Below, piece after piece: positions 25,617-39,197 of a DNA stretch of 64,000 nucleotides. The translations under genes and the position numbers were made by a program. Source of the stretch: Streptomyces sp. NBC_01551 (GTDB taxonomy: Bacteria; Actinomycetota; Actinomycetes; Streptomycetales; Streptomycetaceae); assembly GCF_026339935.1 (NCBI RefSeq), contig NZ_JAPEPX010000001.1, positions 4,893,501-4,957,500 on the forward strand, written 5' to 3'. The notes below the pieces were generated by a model. It searched no databases. It was given only the letters and a program-made list of their open reading frames with translations, and was not told where the DNA came from. Positions within the stretch are counted from its first letter, which is position 1, and every line of letters starts with the position of its first letter.

Positions 25617-27251
25617 CTACGCCGCGGCCCACGGCCAGTCGGCGTCCCGGCCGCCCTCGATCAGGGAGACCATGCGGAAGGCCGCGTCGGTCAGCCCGCC
25701 GAAGGTGTGCCGGTTGCCGGAGCCGGCGGGCGCGTGCCCGACCCGGTACCCGGCCAGGTTCCAGGTGTAGACCGCGACCGTGTCCGGCACCAGCGCCGTC
25801 GGGTCGCCGCCGTAGTGGTAGGTGGCCTGCTCGTCCGTGACGATCAGGACCCGGTCGTGGTCCGCGAAGTGCTGCCGGATCGCCTCGGCGGTGTAGGTGC
25901 CGCCCAGGTTCTCGAAGCGGTCCAGCACCTTGAGCACGGACTCGCCGCGCGCGTACGCGACCGCCTTGCTTCCGGTGCCGAACTGCACGAGGTCCGCGTG
26001 CTCGGCCCGCAGCGCCAGCGCCGTACCGAAGATCGCCGCCGCGTCCGCCCGGTTGAGCTGCGAACGGTCCGAGAGCGGGGACCACATCGACCCGGACCGG
26101 TCGACCAGGATCAGCGTCCGCCCCGGCAGGGCCGGTACGTTGGCCAGCGAGTGGCCGAGCGCCTGCTCCAGCGGATACGCCCAGCGCAGCGACGGCGCGT
26201 GCTGGTAGGCGGCGAGGTAGCGGAAGGGGAACTGCCGCGACCGCGCCACGACCTCGGGGTCGGAGATCTTCGCCGCGACGCCCGCCGCCACCGCGTCCGA
26301 GACCCCGGCCTGGTCGAAGTTGCGCAGGTTCCGCAGCAGCGCCATCACTCCCATGGACGGGATGACCGCCTCCCAGGCGGCCGCGTCCATCGGGCCCTGC
26401 AGCCACCCGGCCAGCGCCTCCCACGTCATGCCCGCCGCGGCCAGCCGCTCGGCCCCGTCGGGGGCGGTGACCACGGCCCGGCGCTCCGTCACGGGCAGCT
26501 CCATGAGCTCCCGGTGCGCGGCCAGGGTGCGGTTGCCGGCCGGCACCTCGGCGGTCTCGGGGTGGTGCCGGCGGTCGAGGGCGTACCGGAACAGCTCGCC
26601 CTGCCAGGCCTTGGCCGGGTCGGGGGAGGCGTGCACGAGATTGAGGACGTCGCCGAAGCGGAAGCCCTTGGAGGCGGTGTCGTACTTCAGCAGCGAGGTG
26701 CCGGAGTAGAGCCGGCGCACGGCGTCGGCGATTCCGCGCTTGACGGGCTTGGGCACGTTCCGCCCGTACGTCGCCGTCCAGTACGCCAGCAGCTCACCGG
26801 GCTCGTCCGCGCGGCGCAGCACGGAGTCCACGACCTGCCGGTTCGACGGGCCCCCGGTGACCGAGGCGTCGAGCCGCGCCCGGACGTACTCGGCGGCGCC
26901 GACGAGTGAGGCAGTGCGCATGTTGCCGTCGCCCCGGAGCCAGGCCAGCAGGCCGGCGGTCCACTCGGGATCCTCGACGGCGAGCCGTCGCACGAGCGCC
27001 GCGAACCGGTCGTCGCGGGCCTGGCCGCCCTCGTAGAAGGTCTGCTGCGTCACGAAGTTGGCGACGGCGAGCAGGAACAGCTCGGAGCGCGGGTCGCGGA
27101 CGAAGCCCGCGCCGCCCTGGTGACCAGTGGCGCGCCGGCCGGTGGTCCGGACGGGTGAGGTGGCCGCGGCGGACGGAGCGGCAGCGGAGGCCGAAGTGGC
27201 CGCGGTCTTGGCGGACTTGGTCTTGGACGAGCGCAGGTTGAAACGAGCCAT
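25617..27251 (-). CDS. rsr: Ro60/Rsr homologue (TROVE + vWA domain RNA-binding protein)
   Basis: Encodes a 544-residue orthologue of Ro60, the ring-shaped RNA-binding protein that holds Y RNAs and, in bacteria, links them to ribonucleases in RNA quality control and stress response. Residues 1-50 are a basic Ala/Ser/Thr-rich arm. About 50-370 is the TROVE HEAT-repeat ring, starting at GGAGFVRDPRSELFLLAV. About 379-544 is a vWA domain with an intact MIDAS: DRSGSMWS (Asp384), the Thr of LGGTYT and the Asp of VTDEQ. ATG 27251 has a G-rich ribosome-binding site. Three Y RNA-like units lie immediately upstream on the same strand, strongly supporting the assignment. Confidence 0.93.
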   Translation of the reverse strand: MARFNLRSSKTKSAKTAATSASAAAPSAAATSPVRTTGRRATGHQGGAGFVRDPRSELFLLAVANFVTQQTFYEGGQARDDRFAALVRRLAVEDPEWTAGLLAWLRGDGNMRTASLVGAAEYVRARLDASVTGGPSNRQVVDSVLRRADEPGELLAYWTATYGRNVPKPVKRGIADAVRRLYSGTSLLKYDTASKGFRFGDVLNLVHASPDPAKAWQGELFRYALDRRHHPETAEVPAGNRTLAAHRELMELPVTERRAVVTAPDGAERLAAAGMTWEALAGWLQGPMDAAAWEAVIPSMGVMALLRNLRNFDQAGVSDAVAAGVAAKISDPEVVARSRQFPFRYLAAYQHAPSLRWAYPLEQALGHSLANVPALPGRTLILVDRSGSMWSPLSDRSQLNRADAAAIFGTALALRAEHADLVQFGTGSKAVAYARGESVLKVLDRFENLGGTYTAEAIRQHFADHDRVLIVTDEQATYHYGGDPTALVPDTVAVYTWNLAGYRVGHAPAGSGNRHTFGGLTDAAFRMVSLIEGGRDADWPWAAA

Positions 27252-27299
27252 GTGAATCCCCCCGAATTCAGTGGAAACCGGGGGAGGCGTGACGTGCGG

Positions 27300-27434
27300 G
27301 ATGCCCGAGATCAGAGGTCGGCGACGGACTGTAGCCGGGCGAGCTTCCAAGCTGCTCCACCAGCCGAGGCTGGGCGGGATTCGAACCCGCGACCTCCCGG
27401 TCCCGGAAGTAACCGTCGCCTGCGCACCGGACAT
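27300..27434 (-). ncRNA. Y RNA-like (YrlA type) RNA, rsr-proximal unit
   Basis: Read on the minus strand, the unit starts GTCCGGTGCGCAGGCGA. Its closing helix is GGCGACGG (27420-27413) with CCGTCGCC (27327-27320). Inside are tRNA pieces in permuted order: a T-arm GCGGG-TTCGAAT-CCCGC (27390-27374), a 5-bp capped stem CCAGC-CTCG-GCTGG (27373-27360) and a D-arm GAGC-AGCTTGGAA-GCTC (27357-27341). TACTTCC follows the 5' helix strand as in the other units. This is the YrlA layout: a Ro-binding stem whose far end folds as a tRNA mimic. Exact ends are uncertain. Confidence 0.75.
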
Positions 27435-27445
27435 ACCGCACGCGT

Positions 27446-27513
27446 GCCTCCCGAGATCAGATGCGGCTGCGGCGGGCTTTTTGGAGAAGTAGCCGCTGCC
27501 GGGCGCACCGGGA
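27446..27513 (-). ncRNA. Possible minimal Y RNA without tRNA-like module
   Basis: Between the two tRNA-like units is a third copy of the shared features: CCGGTGCGC, then GGCAGCGG (27500-27493), then CTACTTC. GGCAGCGG pairs with CCGCAGCC (27472-27465) with a single A-A mismatch. The roughly 20-base loop holds CTACTTC and AAAAAGCC but no T- or D-arm. The 3' flank ATCTGATCTCGGG repeats the flank of the rsr-proximal unit. It could be a short Y RNA or a spacer formed by duplication and loss of the tRNA module. Confidence 0.45.
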
Positions 27514-27529
27514 GGTGCGTGACGTAGGT

Positions 27530-27666
27530 GTCCAGAGGTCGAGTTCGGCGAAACCACGTGGTGCTCTGCCAACTGAGCTACACCGGCTCGGAAGCCGGTG
27601 ACGGGACTCGAACCCGCGACCGCCCCATTAAGAGTGGAAGTAGGTCTCGCCTTCGCACCTGGACGA
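27530..27666 (-). ncRNA. Y RNA-like (YrlA type) RNA with complete permuted tRNA module
   Basis: Minus-strand order: GTCCAGGTGCGAAGGCGA, TACTTCC, T-arm CGGG-TTCGAGT-CCCG (27616-27602), a perfect 7-bp acceptor-like stem CACCGGC/GCCGGTG (27600-27594 with 27587-27581) closed by a TTCCGA loop, TA (like U8-A9), then a D-arm GCTC-AGTTGGCA-GAGC (27578-27563). The whole is closed by GGCGAGACC (27651-27643) with GGTTTCGCC (27555-27547), 9 bp with one wobble. All T-loop/D-loop contact residues of a tRNA are present, but joined through the acceptor end, as in bacterial YrlA RNAs. TAACGT at 27677-27672 is a candidate -10. Confidence 0.8.
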
Positions 27667-27678
27667 CTCCTACGTTAG

Positions 27679-27699
27679 GCGGCGGCCGCGGACCGCCGC
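27679..27699. terminator. GC hairpin upstream of the Y RNA cluster
   Basis: GCGGCGG (27679-27685) pairs with CCGCCGC (27693-27699) around a 7-base loop. A GGTTTTT run lies beyond it on the plus strand. It may separate the NADAR transcript from the RNA cluster, or overlap the cluster's promoter; no -35 hexamer is clear. Confidence 0.4.
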
Positions 27700-27715
27700 G
27701 AACGGTTTTTCCGGC

Positions 27716-28285
27716 TCAGTCCCGCGCCGCCGCGTCCGCGCCCGACCGCAGCCGCTCGCGGGCCTCCATCAGGGCGAAGCCCAGCAGGTTCAGCCCGCGC
27801 CAGCGCGCCGGGTCCAGGGCGCGCTCGTCGTCGGCGGCGAGGCCGATGCCCCAGATCCGGTCCATCGGGCTCGCCTCCACCAGCACCCGGTTCCCGGTGC
27901 CCAGCAGGTACCCCCGCAGCGCCGGGTCGGAGCCGAACTTGTGGACGCTGCCCTCCACCACCAGGGCGAACCGCTCGCGCTCCCACATCGCGTCGTCGAA
28001 GCCGCGCACCAGGCGCCCGGCCTGCTTCGCCGCCGCCGGGCTCGTCGCTTCCAGCGCGGCGCGCTCCGCCTCGGCGTCCCCGAACAGCCGGGCCTTGCCC
28101 GCCATCATCCAGTGCTCCGCCGTCGCGTACCGGACGTCACCCACAGTGAAGGCGGACGGCCACCACTGGCTCAGACAGCTCGGCCCGAGCGACCCGTCGA
28201 GCCGCGGCCGGTGCCCCCAGAACGGCAGGAACTTCACCCGCTCACCGCTGCTGACCTGCCTGATCAAGCCATCGATCATTTCCAT
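27716..28285 (-). CDS. NADAR-family protein (YbiA-like)
   Basis: Encodes a 189-residue NADAR-domain protein. The family segments FLPFWGH, LSQWWPSAF, VRYATAEHWMMAGKARLF and the WRGLNLLGFALMEAR C-terminus are intact. Family members act as N-glycosidases on riboflavin-pathway intermediates or remove ADP-ribose from guanine bases. The start at ATG 28285 is chosen; ATG 28279 is an alternative and neither has a strong ribosome-binding site. It lies on the same strand as, and upstream of, the Y RNA-rsr cluster, with 49 bases between its stop and the first RNA unit. Confidence 0.85.
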   Translation of the reverse strand: MEMIDGLIRQVSSGERVKFLPFWGHRPRLDGSLGPSCLSQWWPSAFTVGDVRYATAEHWMMAGKARLFGDAEAERAALEATSPAAAKQAGRLVRGFDDAMWERERFALVVEGSVHKFGSDPALRGYLLGTGNRVLVEASPMDRIWGIGLAADDERALDPARWRGLNLLGFALMEARERLRSGADAAARD

Positions 28286-38258: not shown

Positions 38259-39064
38259 CCGTCCTCCGGTCCGGGGCCCCGCGCGGCTCCGGACCGGCCG
38301 GGCGGGCCGGCGCCGCGGCGTACGGACCGCGCGACGGCCAGCAGCAGGGGGAGGCAGAGGAAGCAGCTGGCCAGGACGTCCAGGGGCCAGTGGAAGCCGC
38401 GGACGATCAGGCCGGCGGCCGTGGCGGCCGTCAGGGTGAGGGCGGCGGCCATCGGCCACGGGCGGCGGGTGTACGGGGCGATCAGCAGCGCCGCGCCGAG
38501 GTAGGCGACGGCGGCGGTGGCCGTGTGGCCCGAGGGGTAGTAGCCCGCGGCCCAGGGCTCCAGCGGGCCCGGGCGGGCGGTCCACTCCTTCAGCGGGATG
38601 ATCAGCGCCGGCACCAGGGCCATCGCGAGGCCCGCCGTCAGGGCCGGGGCCCAGGCGCGGGAGCGCCGCACGGAGTACGCCATCGCGAGCGCGAGGACCG
38701 GCAGCGCGACCGGGATGTTGCCGAGGTCCGCGAGGCGTTCGGTGACCGCGTCGGGGACGGTGCGGACGAGGGCGCGGCTGAGGTGCTCGTCCGGCGTGAG
38801 CAGCGGGCCCGTGACCAGGACCTGCCAGGTCGTCAGGGCGAGGCCCAGCAGGGAGAAGAGGAGGAGAGTGGCCGGCCGTCCCGGAACAGGGGGGATGGTT
38901 CCGGGACGGCCGCCCGGATCGGGTTGCCGCGCGCCCCGGGGGGTTTGGGGCGGACGGCCGTCCGATCGGTGAGGAGCGTGCGCGAACGCATGCCCGGTAC
39001 GGCGCTGGGGAAGCCCGGTACCGGGATCGTCCCCGGTTTCCCGGGAACGGGCTGTCTCACTCAT
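38243..39064 (-). CDS. PAP2-superfamily phosphatase, membrane bound
   Basis: Encodes a 273-residue integral membrane phosphatase. The PAP2 motifs are KEWTARPGP, PSGHT (YYPSGHTATA) and RGFHWPLDV, lying between about five hydrophobic helices. Such enzymes dephosphorylate phosphatidate, undecaprenyl pyrophosphate or related lipids. The N-terminal 60 residues (from ATG 39064) are hydrophilic, low complexity and contain DNA inverted repeats, and no good ribosome-binding site is seen, so the true start may lie further downstream. Confidence 0.8.
   Translation of the reverse strand: MSETARSRETGDDPGTGLPQRRTGHAFAHAPHRSDGRPPQTPRGARQPDPGGRPGTIPPVPGRPATLLLFSLLGLALTTWQVLVTGPLLTPDEHLSRALVRTVPDAVTERLADLGNIPVALPVLALAMAYSVRRSRAWAPALTAGLAMALVPALIIPLKEWTARPGPLEPWAAGYYPSGHTATAAVAYLGAALLIAPYTRRPWPMAAALTLTAATAAGLIVRGFHWPLDVLASCFLCLPLLLAVARSVRRGAGPPGRSGAARGPGPEDGQPPK
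38873..38912. repeat. 15-bp perfect inverted repeat inside the PAP2 5' region
   Basis: CGGCCGTCCCGGAAC (38873-38887) is exactly complementary to GTTCCGGGACGGCCG (38898-38912), with a 10-base spacer. A further cluster of CCGGTACCGGG and CCCCGG...CCGGG palindromes lies at about 38995-39050. Perfect pairing across codons is unlikely by chance and suggests a hairpin in the mRNA or a non-coding leader. Confidence 0.7.
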
Positions 39065-39197
39065 CTGCAGAAACCGTACGGCAGCGAAAGGGGGACCGAC
39101 AGCGGGAACGCGCTCCCGCCATCGGCCCCCCACACCTTCTTCACAGTGCCCGACCGTTACCGGCGGTATGGATTGGTCACCGTGTTCGGGCGTTCGC

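What the first reader, a model, noticed from the sequence alone, without database searches (positions are those of the whole stretch)
27251..27670. Ro60 homologue preceded by a cluster of three Y RNA-like units
Directly upstream of rsr, on the same strand, three tandem RNA units share the block CC(A)GGTGCG..., a GGC-starting closing helix and a TACTTC motif. Two contain permuted tRNA-like modules. Bacterial Y RNAs (YrlA) are known to bind Rsr and to mimic tRNA, and rsr with two Yrl genes is known in Salmonella. A triple array with one minimal member in a streptomycete is, to my knowledge, not commonly annotated. It suggests an Rsr-Y RNA RNA-processing machine in this organism.
Basis: partly seen in the sequence, partly recalled or inferred. 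Interest (0 to 1): 0.92.

Follow-up and report, generated by a model that had tools for sequence, protein, structure and literature searches.

The report
Y RNAs hiding a permuted tRNA
Just before a bacterial Ro60 gene lie three small RNA genes, one of which carries a whole transfer RNA cut open and re-ordered, with an anticodon loop whose shape is kept in related species while its triplet changes, so it seems to copy the form of a tRNA rather than its message.

Summary
Upstream of rsr (minus strand) lie three tandem Y RNAs: A 27663-27531, B 27513-27449, C 27432-27303. Of 81 loci examined (80 relatives plus the window) 42 carry A+B+C and 80 at least one unit. Aligned sets of all three show compensatory base changes. 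C has the known YrlA layout; B has no tRNA module. A is the surprise: between Y stem and T arm it carries an anticodon hairpin (CCA-CUCUUAA-UGG), so A holds a complete, circularly permuted class I tRNA with the Y stem plugged into its anticodon stem. The hairpin is in 54 of 56 A units and 0 of 65 C units (shuffled control 1-4%). In those 54, C32, U33 and A38 never change, while nucleotide 35 changes most of all positions. Anticodons (CUU, CAU, GUU and others) do not agree with the discriminator base: mimicry of tRNA shape, not decoding. Similar RNAs occur in other Actinomycetes, on a Rhodococcus plasmid and in phages, where six overlap annotated tRNA genes. Transcription and partners are untested, and key prior papers could not be read, so novelty is provisional: a new variant of a known kind.

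The parts
25617..27251 (-). rsr, Ro60/TROVE-VWA protein, 544 aa
   Evidence: Pfam TROVE E=2.7e-13; PDB TROVE-domain proteins 9l5y and 9kop E=2.5e-29
27531..27663 (-). Y RNA unit A, with a complete permuted tRNA head
   Evidence: Rfam YrlA E=5.4e-7 with a 15-nt insertion where the anticodon hairpin lies; covariation; hairpin test
27643..27651 (-). unit A inner Y helix, 5' strand (pairs with 27555-27547)
   Evidence: coordinates; 92.9% of cells paired, 4 of 9 pairs with changes on both sides
27625..27637 (-). unit A anticodon hairpin CCA-CUCUUAA-UGG; anticodon CUU at 27632-27630
   Evidence: anticodon arm 100% paired, 17 compensated cells
27601..27617 (-). unit A T arm
27581..27600 (-). unit A acceptor stem, closed as a hairpin
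27563..27578 (-). unit A D arm; the nucleotides after it supply tRNA positions 26-28
   Evidence: the D stem never varies, so it is neither supported nor opposed by covariation
27449..27513 (-). Y RNA unit B, minimal, no tRNA module
   Evidence: pattern found in 74 of 81 loci; covariation; fold z -2.46
27303..27432 (-). Y RNA unit C, YrlA layout; D arm like that of initiator tRNA or tRNA-Asp
   Evidence: Rfam YrlA E=7.2e-10; covarying open anticodon stem in 40 aligned units; own tRNAs
27672..27702 (-). conserved promoter-like block (-35-like 27702-27697, -10-like TAACGT 27677-27672) before the first unit
   Evidence: AAA.CC.T.GC ... CTA..GT consensus upstream of 56 A units; no such block in the consensus of the 80 bases before 74 B or 65 C units
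27258..27284 (-). leader hairpin CCCCCG...CGGGGG whose 3' arm is the rsr ribosome-binding site
   Evidence: sequence; covariation not tested

Best explanation
The block is a Y RNA array that forms the leader of the rsr transcript. SHOWN by sequence: three RNAs share one basal frame (terminal helix, GGTGCG internal loop, GGC helix, TACTTC) and differ in their heads. B has a short loop. C has a YrlA-type head, a tRNA in permuted order whose anticodon stem opens into the Y body. A has a complete permuted class I tRNA: three pairs of the anticodon stem form a hairpin with a 7-nt loop, the other two are most likely closed by the strand that follows the D arm, and the Y stem leaves at tRNA positions 28/29. 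INFERRED: one promoter starts at unit A and the units are cut from the rsr leader; the common frame binds the Rsr ring; the heads dock proteins that recognise tRNA shape (PNPase as in the Deinococcus RYPER complex, tRNA-modifying enzymes), so one Rsr can be given different effector handles. The anticodon loop is kept as a tRNA shape and is not read as a codon.
For: Array conserved in relatives. Unit A (54 sequences, 52 distinct): 98.1% of cells paired, 14 pairs with changes on both sides against 5.4 in shuffles; anticodon arm alone 100% paired, 17 compensated cells against 3.5. Anticodon hairpin in 54 of 56 A, 0 of 65 C, 6 of 6 rsr-unlinked units, 15 of 31 T-arm-bearing units of other Actinomycete genomes (chosen as best model matches), 2 of 6 further Streptomyces units and 5 of 17 T-arm-bearing phage pieces; null 1.1% (one spacing) or 3.5% (three spacings) of 8600 shuffles. 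The 54 de-permuted units are all called full tRNAs by ARAGORN, against 1 of 55 in native order and 0 of 1080 shuffles. The tRNA tertiary core (U8-A14, G15-C48, G46, GG in the D loop, T54-T55-C56-A58, G53-C61) is kept in 54 of 54. Loop positions 32, 33 and 38 change 0 times while 34 and 35 change 14 and 20 times on the Rsr tree. Units fetched afterwards from further genomes: hairpin in 31 of 32, A38 in 31 of 31 of those. TROVE and array go together: 33 of 35 genomes. Conserved promoter-like block before the first unit.
Against: The minimum-energy fold of the window's own unit A pairs the loop region another way; that alternative has no compensatory change and is no better paired than shuffles, but it may compete in this strain. 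The last two anticodon-stem pairs can also be written as U-G pairs inside the hairpin; only L009 and L010 separate the two readings. The later units were found with a model that contains the hairpin, and the hairpin test itself demands U33, so only A38, the 7-nt loop spacing and the variable triplet are free in them; two of the 31 have U32, so C32 is not universal. Unit C alone does not fold better than shuffles (z -0.83). Unit B has fewer pair types than most shuffles (497 of 500 at least as high). Rfam's gathering score for YrlA is not reached. No expression, Rsr-binding or PNPase-binding evidence. Fast change at 34/35 is matched or nearly matched by other unpaired columns (17, 17, 16, 15), so selection for variety is not shown.
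Confidence: 0.78

Rival explanations
1. Unit A is bait or decoy for enzymes that attack tRNA anticodon loops: it offers a tRNA anticodon arm anchored to Rsr, so that the nuclease is blocked, or its cut is noticed and handed to repair or decay. The changing triplet then follows changing attackers.
For: The loop keeps a tRNA frame while the triplet changes. For Salmonella YrlA, whose operon responds to cleaved tRNAs, competitive inhibition of an anticodon nuclease is proposed in PMC7790460 (passages seen). Phages carry Ro-like genes with such Y RNAs, several inside tRNA clusters and one beside an RNA ligase. The window's genome has RtcB, though not adjacent.
Against: Same paper: YrlA is not cut by the nuclease studied. 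Position 35 changes only slightly more than other free loop positions (20 against 17). No nuclease gene linked to the array was found, but none was systematically sought.
Confidence: 0.2
2. Unit A is a real, permuted tRNA gene: the acceptor loop is opened by RNase P and 3' trimming and the product is charged and used in translation.
For: Complete tRNA secondary and tertiary core; permuted tRNA genes exist in some algae (recalled).
Against: The anticodon differs between species while the body stays much the same. The discriminator does not follow the anticodon: all 8 GUU units have U73 and 11 of 15 CUU units have U73, while the window genome's tRNA-Asn has G73. Position 37 is a pyrimidine in 10 of 54 units, against 0 of 61 own tRNAs. 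The Y stem would stay in the anticodon stem. The genome already has tRNA-Lys CUU.
Confidence: 0.03
3. The units act mainly in cis, as a folded leader that controls rsr translation (for example Rsr binding its own leader), and free Y RNAs are a by-product.
For: One promoter-like block before the first unit, none in the consensus between units, and a hairpin that includes the rsr ribosome-binding site.
Against: Unit composition varies (ABC, BC, AB, A, B, AC) with the same rsr downstream; an unlinked unit with the same kind of head exists with no rsr found within about 3 kb; known relatives act as separate RNAs (PMC8394870, passages).
Confidence: 0.12
4. The tRNA pieces are decayed remains of tRNA genes with no role.
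For: A junction between two tandem tRNA-Asn genes has the same permuted order, and the unit A model partly matches that junction (own genome 1902592-1902742).
Against: Compensatory changes in every head helix except the invariant D stem, invariant tertiary core, and conservation across species.
Confidence: 0.02

Closest known systems
YrlA-type bacterial Y RNA (Rfam RF02553)
   Same: Next to rsr, two-strand Y stem, T arm - closed acceptor hairpin - D arm in permuted order. Unit C follows the model's layout over its whole length.
   Different: Below Rfam's gathering score. Unit A has an extra anticodon hairpin: the Rfam consensus has no room for it and the match needs a 15-nt insertion at that place. 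A review describes YrlA as like the D, T and acceptor arms of tRNA (PMC8394870, passages).
Rsr - Y RNA - PNPase complex (RYPER) of Deinococcus
   Same: Rsr gene with Y RNA genes alongside; the basal stem is expected to hold Rsr and the head a partner (PMC8394870 and PMC8058203, passages).
   Different: Complex not shown here; three different heads offered at once.
Salmonella rsr-yrlBA-rtcBA repair operon
   Same: Two Y RNAs beside rsr (PMC7790460, passages).
   Different: In the window's genome RtcB lies about 1.1 Mb away; the array precedes rsr; one head has an anticodon arm.
Permuted tRNA genes of algae (recalled, no call)
   Same: The 3' half precedes the 5' half, acceptor ends joined by a short loop.
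   Different: Here the halves stay joined by a long Y stem in the anticodon stem, and anticodon and discriminator do not agree.

Membership tests
Bacterial Y RNA (broad) | encoded next to a Ro60 orthologue | tested here: met
   rsr directly downstream; 33 of 35 TROVE genomes with an adjacent match
Bacterial Y RNA (broad) | 5' and 3' ends form a long conserved stem | tested here: met
   terminal helix 100% of cells paired in A, B and C; inner helix 92.9%, 89.6% and 92.8%, with compensatory changes
Bacterial Y RNA (broad) | binds Rsr / is expressed | not testable with these tools
   needs RNA sequencing and pull-down
YrlA, Rfam RF02553 | reaches Rfam's gathering score (69 bits) | tested here: not met
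   48.8 and 38.8 bits; no YrlA match over the threshold in 18 relatives' loci. So filed as bacterial Y RNAs, not as RF02553 members
YrlA, Rfam RF02553 | permuted T arm - acceptor hairpin - D arm module | tested here: met
   units A and C; the covariation count of C did not include its acceptor and D helices; not unit B
YrlA, Rfam RF02553 | anticodon stem opens into the Y body, no anticodon loop | tested here: inconclusive
   C agrees (0 of 65 with hairpin, covarying open stem); A does not (54 of 56 with hairpin)
Functional tRNA gene | complete tRNA fold and tertiary core | tested here: met
   54 of 54 de-permuted units
Functional tRNA gene | anticodon agrees with discriminator and is conserved; purine 37 | tested here: not met

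The most novel reading that the evidence does not exclude
Rsr-bearing Actinomycetes and phages keep a set of tRNA look-alikes, permuted tRNAs of different types (elongator, initiator- or Asp-like, Glu-like, Leu-like with a long variable arm, Arg-like loops), some with full anticodon arms whose triplet turns over between species. They would serve as Rsr-anchored bait for tRNA-attacking enzymes or as sensors of tRNA damage, in bacterium-phage conflict over tRNAs.
Probability: 0.17. Interest if true: 0.92.

Novelty: new variant of a known kind. Interest (0 to 1): 0.72.

Why it matters
What the tRNA-like head of bacterial Y RNAs is for is still open. Here nature has kept three kinds of head side by side on one frame (none, YrlA-type, whole tRNA with anticodon arm), so the question can be tested by swapping or trimming heads in a laboratory Streptomyces. 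An anticodon arm kept in shape but not in triplet separates 'tRNA shape' from 'tRNA message'. Six annotated phage tRNA genes overlap these RNAs, so tRNA counts in phages with Ro genes may need checking.

Tried and rejected
A brute-force rotation scan with ARAGORN (its first run, crashed) was rejected as unspecific: it accepted 56 of 56 A units but also 61 of 65 C units through accidental loops. It was replaced by the direct hairpin test with a shuffled control. Partial matches to the unit A model (positions 27-104) seen in Streptomyces genomes were set aside: in the window's genome the match spans two tandem tRNA-Asn genes; in the other genomes this was not checked. A t6A-only reading (U36-A37-A38) fits 42 of 54 Streptomyces A units but none of the six unlinked units and 4 of 15 of those in other Actinomycetes. 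The nearest own tRNA of the rotated unit A was tRNA-Thr(CGT), not tRNA-Lys, so capture of a tRNA-Lys is not supported. The alternative minimum-energy hairpin was counted and rejected on covariation. The NADAR gene upstream is no fixed partner (18 of 80 loci). A regex class of C units was corrected by eye: of 10 'TGGAGCAG' calls, L007 and L010 do not have that D arm, leaving 8. One search used a wrong spacing and was replaced. Not run: tests of where units are cut, and a tree of the units themselves.
Full report
WHAT IS THERE. The protein at 27251-25617 (minus strand) is a TROVE/VWA protein, Rsr. The 412 bases before its start codon hold three units on the same strand. In the window they begin TCCAGGTGCG (A), TCCCGGTGCG (B) and GTCCGGTGCG (C); each has an inner helix starting GGC and then TACTTC, and ends with CTCTGGN or CTCGGGN, which closes the terminal helix. 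The terminal helices differ between units but pair within each: UCCAG/CUGGA, UCCCG/CGGGA, G(U/C)CCG/CGGGC.

CONSERVATION. A scan of one genome per species gave 166 relatives, of which the best 80 were kept, nearly all Streptomyces. With the window, 81 loci were examined by pattern: ABC 42, BC 21, AB 8, A 4, B 3, AC 2, none 1. The pattern misses some units. Covariation: unit A (54 of 56 units, 52 distinct; L016 and L037, which lack the hairpin, left out) 98.1% of cells paired, 14 pairs with both-side changes against a shuffled mean of 5.4. Unit B (47 of 74 units) 93.3%, 4 pairs against 2.2, but fewer pair types than shuffles. Unit C (40 of 65 units; I left out 25, mostly with longer or divergent heads) 96.5%, 7 pairs against 4.2, with all five pairs of the open anticodon stem varying on both sides.

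UNIT A HOLDS A WHOLE tRNA. Reading unit A 5' to 3': Y helix, TACTT, anticodon hairpin CCA-CUCUUAA-UGG, variable loop, T arm, acceptor stem closed by a short loop, D arm, nucleotides 26-28, Y helix. The Rfam YrlA model aligns with a 15-nt insertion exactly where the hairpin sits. Joining the D half to the anticodon/T half gives a sequence that ARAGORN calls a full tRNA in 54 of 54 units with the arm (55 units were at hand; L016 had no arm, L037 was found later); in native order 1 of 55; half-swapped 0; shuffled 0 of 1080. A direct test (three stem pairs, 7-nt loop, U33, set spacing to the T arm) finds the hairpin in 54 of 56 A units, 0 of 65 C units and 0 of 74 B units (none of which has a T arm), with 1.1% (one spacing) or 3.5% (three spacings) in 8600 shuffles. 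The outer two anticodon-stem pairs are best made with the strand after the D arm: in L009 and L010 position 43 is C where 27 is G. So the Y stem enters the tRNA at 28/29. The canonical tertiary core is present in 54 of 54. The window's own sequence folds by energy into a competing hairpin, which shows no compensatory change.

THE ANTICODON IS NOT KEPT. In 54 Streptomyces units the loops are CUCUUAA 12, CUCAUAA 12, CUGUUAA 8, CUGAUAA 4, CUGCUAA 4, and nine rarer ones, 14 in total. On the tree of the 54 Rsr proteins (quick method) the inferred changes at loop positions 32 to 38 are 0, 0, 14, 20, 3, 10, 0, with a mean of 2.9 over 133 positions; no position exceeds 35 and five, 35 included, exceed 34. 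Other free loop positions reach 15-17, so this is about the pace of unconstrained nucleotides inside a constrained loop shape; selection for variety is not shown. Discriminator and anticodon do not agree, and position 37 is a pyrimidine in 10 of 54. Together this speaks against decoding. Forty further matches were fetched from other Streptomyces genomes; 8 contained a unit already used; of the remaining 32, 31 have the hairpin, with A38 in 31 of 31, U32 instead of C32 in two, and 12 different loops. These were found with a model that includes the hairpin, and the test demands U33, so the free part is A38 and the variable triplet. Some of the 32 are not A-frame units.

HEADS OF OTHER tRNA TYPES (labels are mine, from loops and D arms). 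In the window and seven relatives (L003, L008, L009, L012, L014, L033, L034) unit C has a D arm like that of initiator tRNA or tRNA-Asp; in six others (L041, L052, L056, L060, L071, L077) a Leu-like one, with a longer stretch before the T arm (read by eye). In other Actinomycete families arrays of up to five units were seen, with Glu-like CUC, Arg-like GCG or UCG and Asn-like GUU loops. Fifteen of 31 T-arm-bearing units there have the hairpin; four more of the 35 pieces scored lack a T arm. Six Streptomyces genomes also have a Glu-like, hairpin-bearing unit with no rsr found within about 3 kb (6 of 6 with hairpin). Of the 20 genome stretches fetched, a relative of Rsr was found by tblastn in 12; the other eight are these six, L230 (one C-type unit) and L242, where the Pfam search had placed a TROVE match that tblastn missed.

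DISTRIBUTION. Of 296 genomes of the class, 35 have TROVE at E<=1e-10. In 33 of these a full-length match to the unit A model lies within 4 kb; the exceptions are G010 and G059. Thirteen full-length matches lie elsewhere, nine of them under 52 bits; one of the stronger (G182) does have an Rsr relative beside it that the TROVE threshold missed. Read by eye, in the 28 genomes of the window's genus full-length matches occur in 15 of 15 TROVE-bearing and 0 of 13 TROVE-less genomes. Phages: 84 records encode a relative of Rsr. Eight were opened: 7 have full-length model matches at E<=1e-10 (in Arthrobacter phage Atuin downstream of the gene), and Kela has a partial one. The opened Streptomyces phages other than Kela, and Atuin, have the gene among tRNA genes; Kela has an RNA ligase beside it. 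Four more phage records were opened out of 58 found by DNA: Xanthomonas phage Olaya, Brevundimonas phage Gurke, Microbacterium phage Magritte and a Mycobacterium prophage, each with full-length matches. Six annotated phage 'tRNAs' overlap a model match: L185 tRNA-Ser(gct), L187 and L288 tRNA-Arg(tct), L192 tRNA-Arg(cct), L287 tRNA-Ser, L289 tRNA-Thr(tgt). Four of the six pass the hairpin test; L192 fails it, and L287 was not scored because its T loop missed the pattern, though by eye it reads CGA-CUGCUAA-UCG. None of the six has an Rfam tRNA match at the annotated place (to E 0.01, to E 0.1); in L289 a 34-bit tRNA match begins just past it and spans two units. A Rhodococcus rhodochrous plasmid carries two hairpin-bearing units before its TROVE gene. 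A Bifidobacterium plasmid gave only weak matches and a Streptomyces plasmid only a short unit without tRNA module; 73 plasmid records matched and three were opened.

EXPRESSION LAYOUT. Upstream of the first unit a promoter-like block is conserved (AAA.CC.T.GC, then CTA..GT just before GTCCAGG); in most B-first arrays a similar block stands before B by eye, and the consensus before B and C units in general shows none. So the units are probably part of the rsr leader and cut out of it. This is inference.

PRIOR KNOWLEDGE. Bacterial Y RNAs near rsr, their tRNA-like heads and phage members are known; that Chen et al. 2014 reported more than 250 bacterial and phage species is recalled. That paper, Wang 2018 and Sim & Wolin 2018 are not held. 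The passages read describe YrlA as resembling D, T and acceptor arms (PMC8394870) and suggest competitive inhibition of an anticodon nuclease (PMC7790460). Rfam at gathering score gives no YrlA in 18 loci; its one match there is a 29.4-bit tRNA hit that begins inside unit A of L076. Literature searches: TROVE+Streptomyces+Y RNA, 0 papers; permuted tRNA+Y RNA, 0; anticodon+Y RNA+Ro60+bacteria+mimic, 7 papers (listing seen, passages of two of them read with other terms, nothing on an anticodon arm in a Y RNA in those passages). The claim of a new variant is therefore provisional.

Noticed in passing
L223-L228 (G101:C5:161569, G390:C1:118533, G397:C1:8515295, G327:C42:44104, G310:C3:297844, G326:C5:44641): Single Y RNA units with Glu-like D arm and a variable anticodon loop, with no rsr found within about 3 kb; the three neighbouring genes that were scanned differ (amino acid permease, oxidoreductase, NmrA-like).
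   Followed up: partly
L185:2223-2296, L187:2141-2212, L192:2188-2262, L287:1064-1138, L288:571-647, L289:769-847: Annotated phage tRNA genes that overlap matches to the Y RNA model and have no Rfam tRNA match at that place; probably Y RNAs.
   Followed up: yes
L189:1663-4099: Streptomyces phage Kela: RNA ligase gene (PF09414) next to the Ro-like gene, with TACTTC-bearing units upstream.
   Followed up: partly
window 27258-27284: Hairpin in the rsr leader whose 3' arm is the ribosome-binding site; a similar pyrimidine run precedes the conserved GAATTCGGGGG in many relatives.
   Followed up: no
G000:C1:1902592-1902742: Two tandem tRNA-Asn genes; their junction has the same order as the permuted head, a possible origin of such heads.
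   Followed up: partly
window 27716-28285: NADAR-family gene directly upstream on the same strand; found in 18 of 80 related loci.
   Followed up: partly
window 38961-39066: Scr5676 Streptomyces sRNA (Rfam RF02832, 75.4 bits), the only Rfam gathering-level match in the window.
   Followed up: no
L185:4416-4648, L186:4528-4691: Near-threshold manA RNA matches between tRNA-Lys genes in two Streptomyces phages.
   Followed up: no
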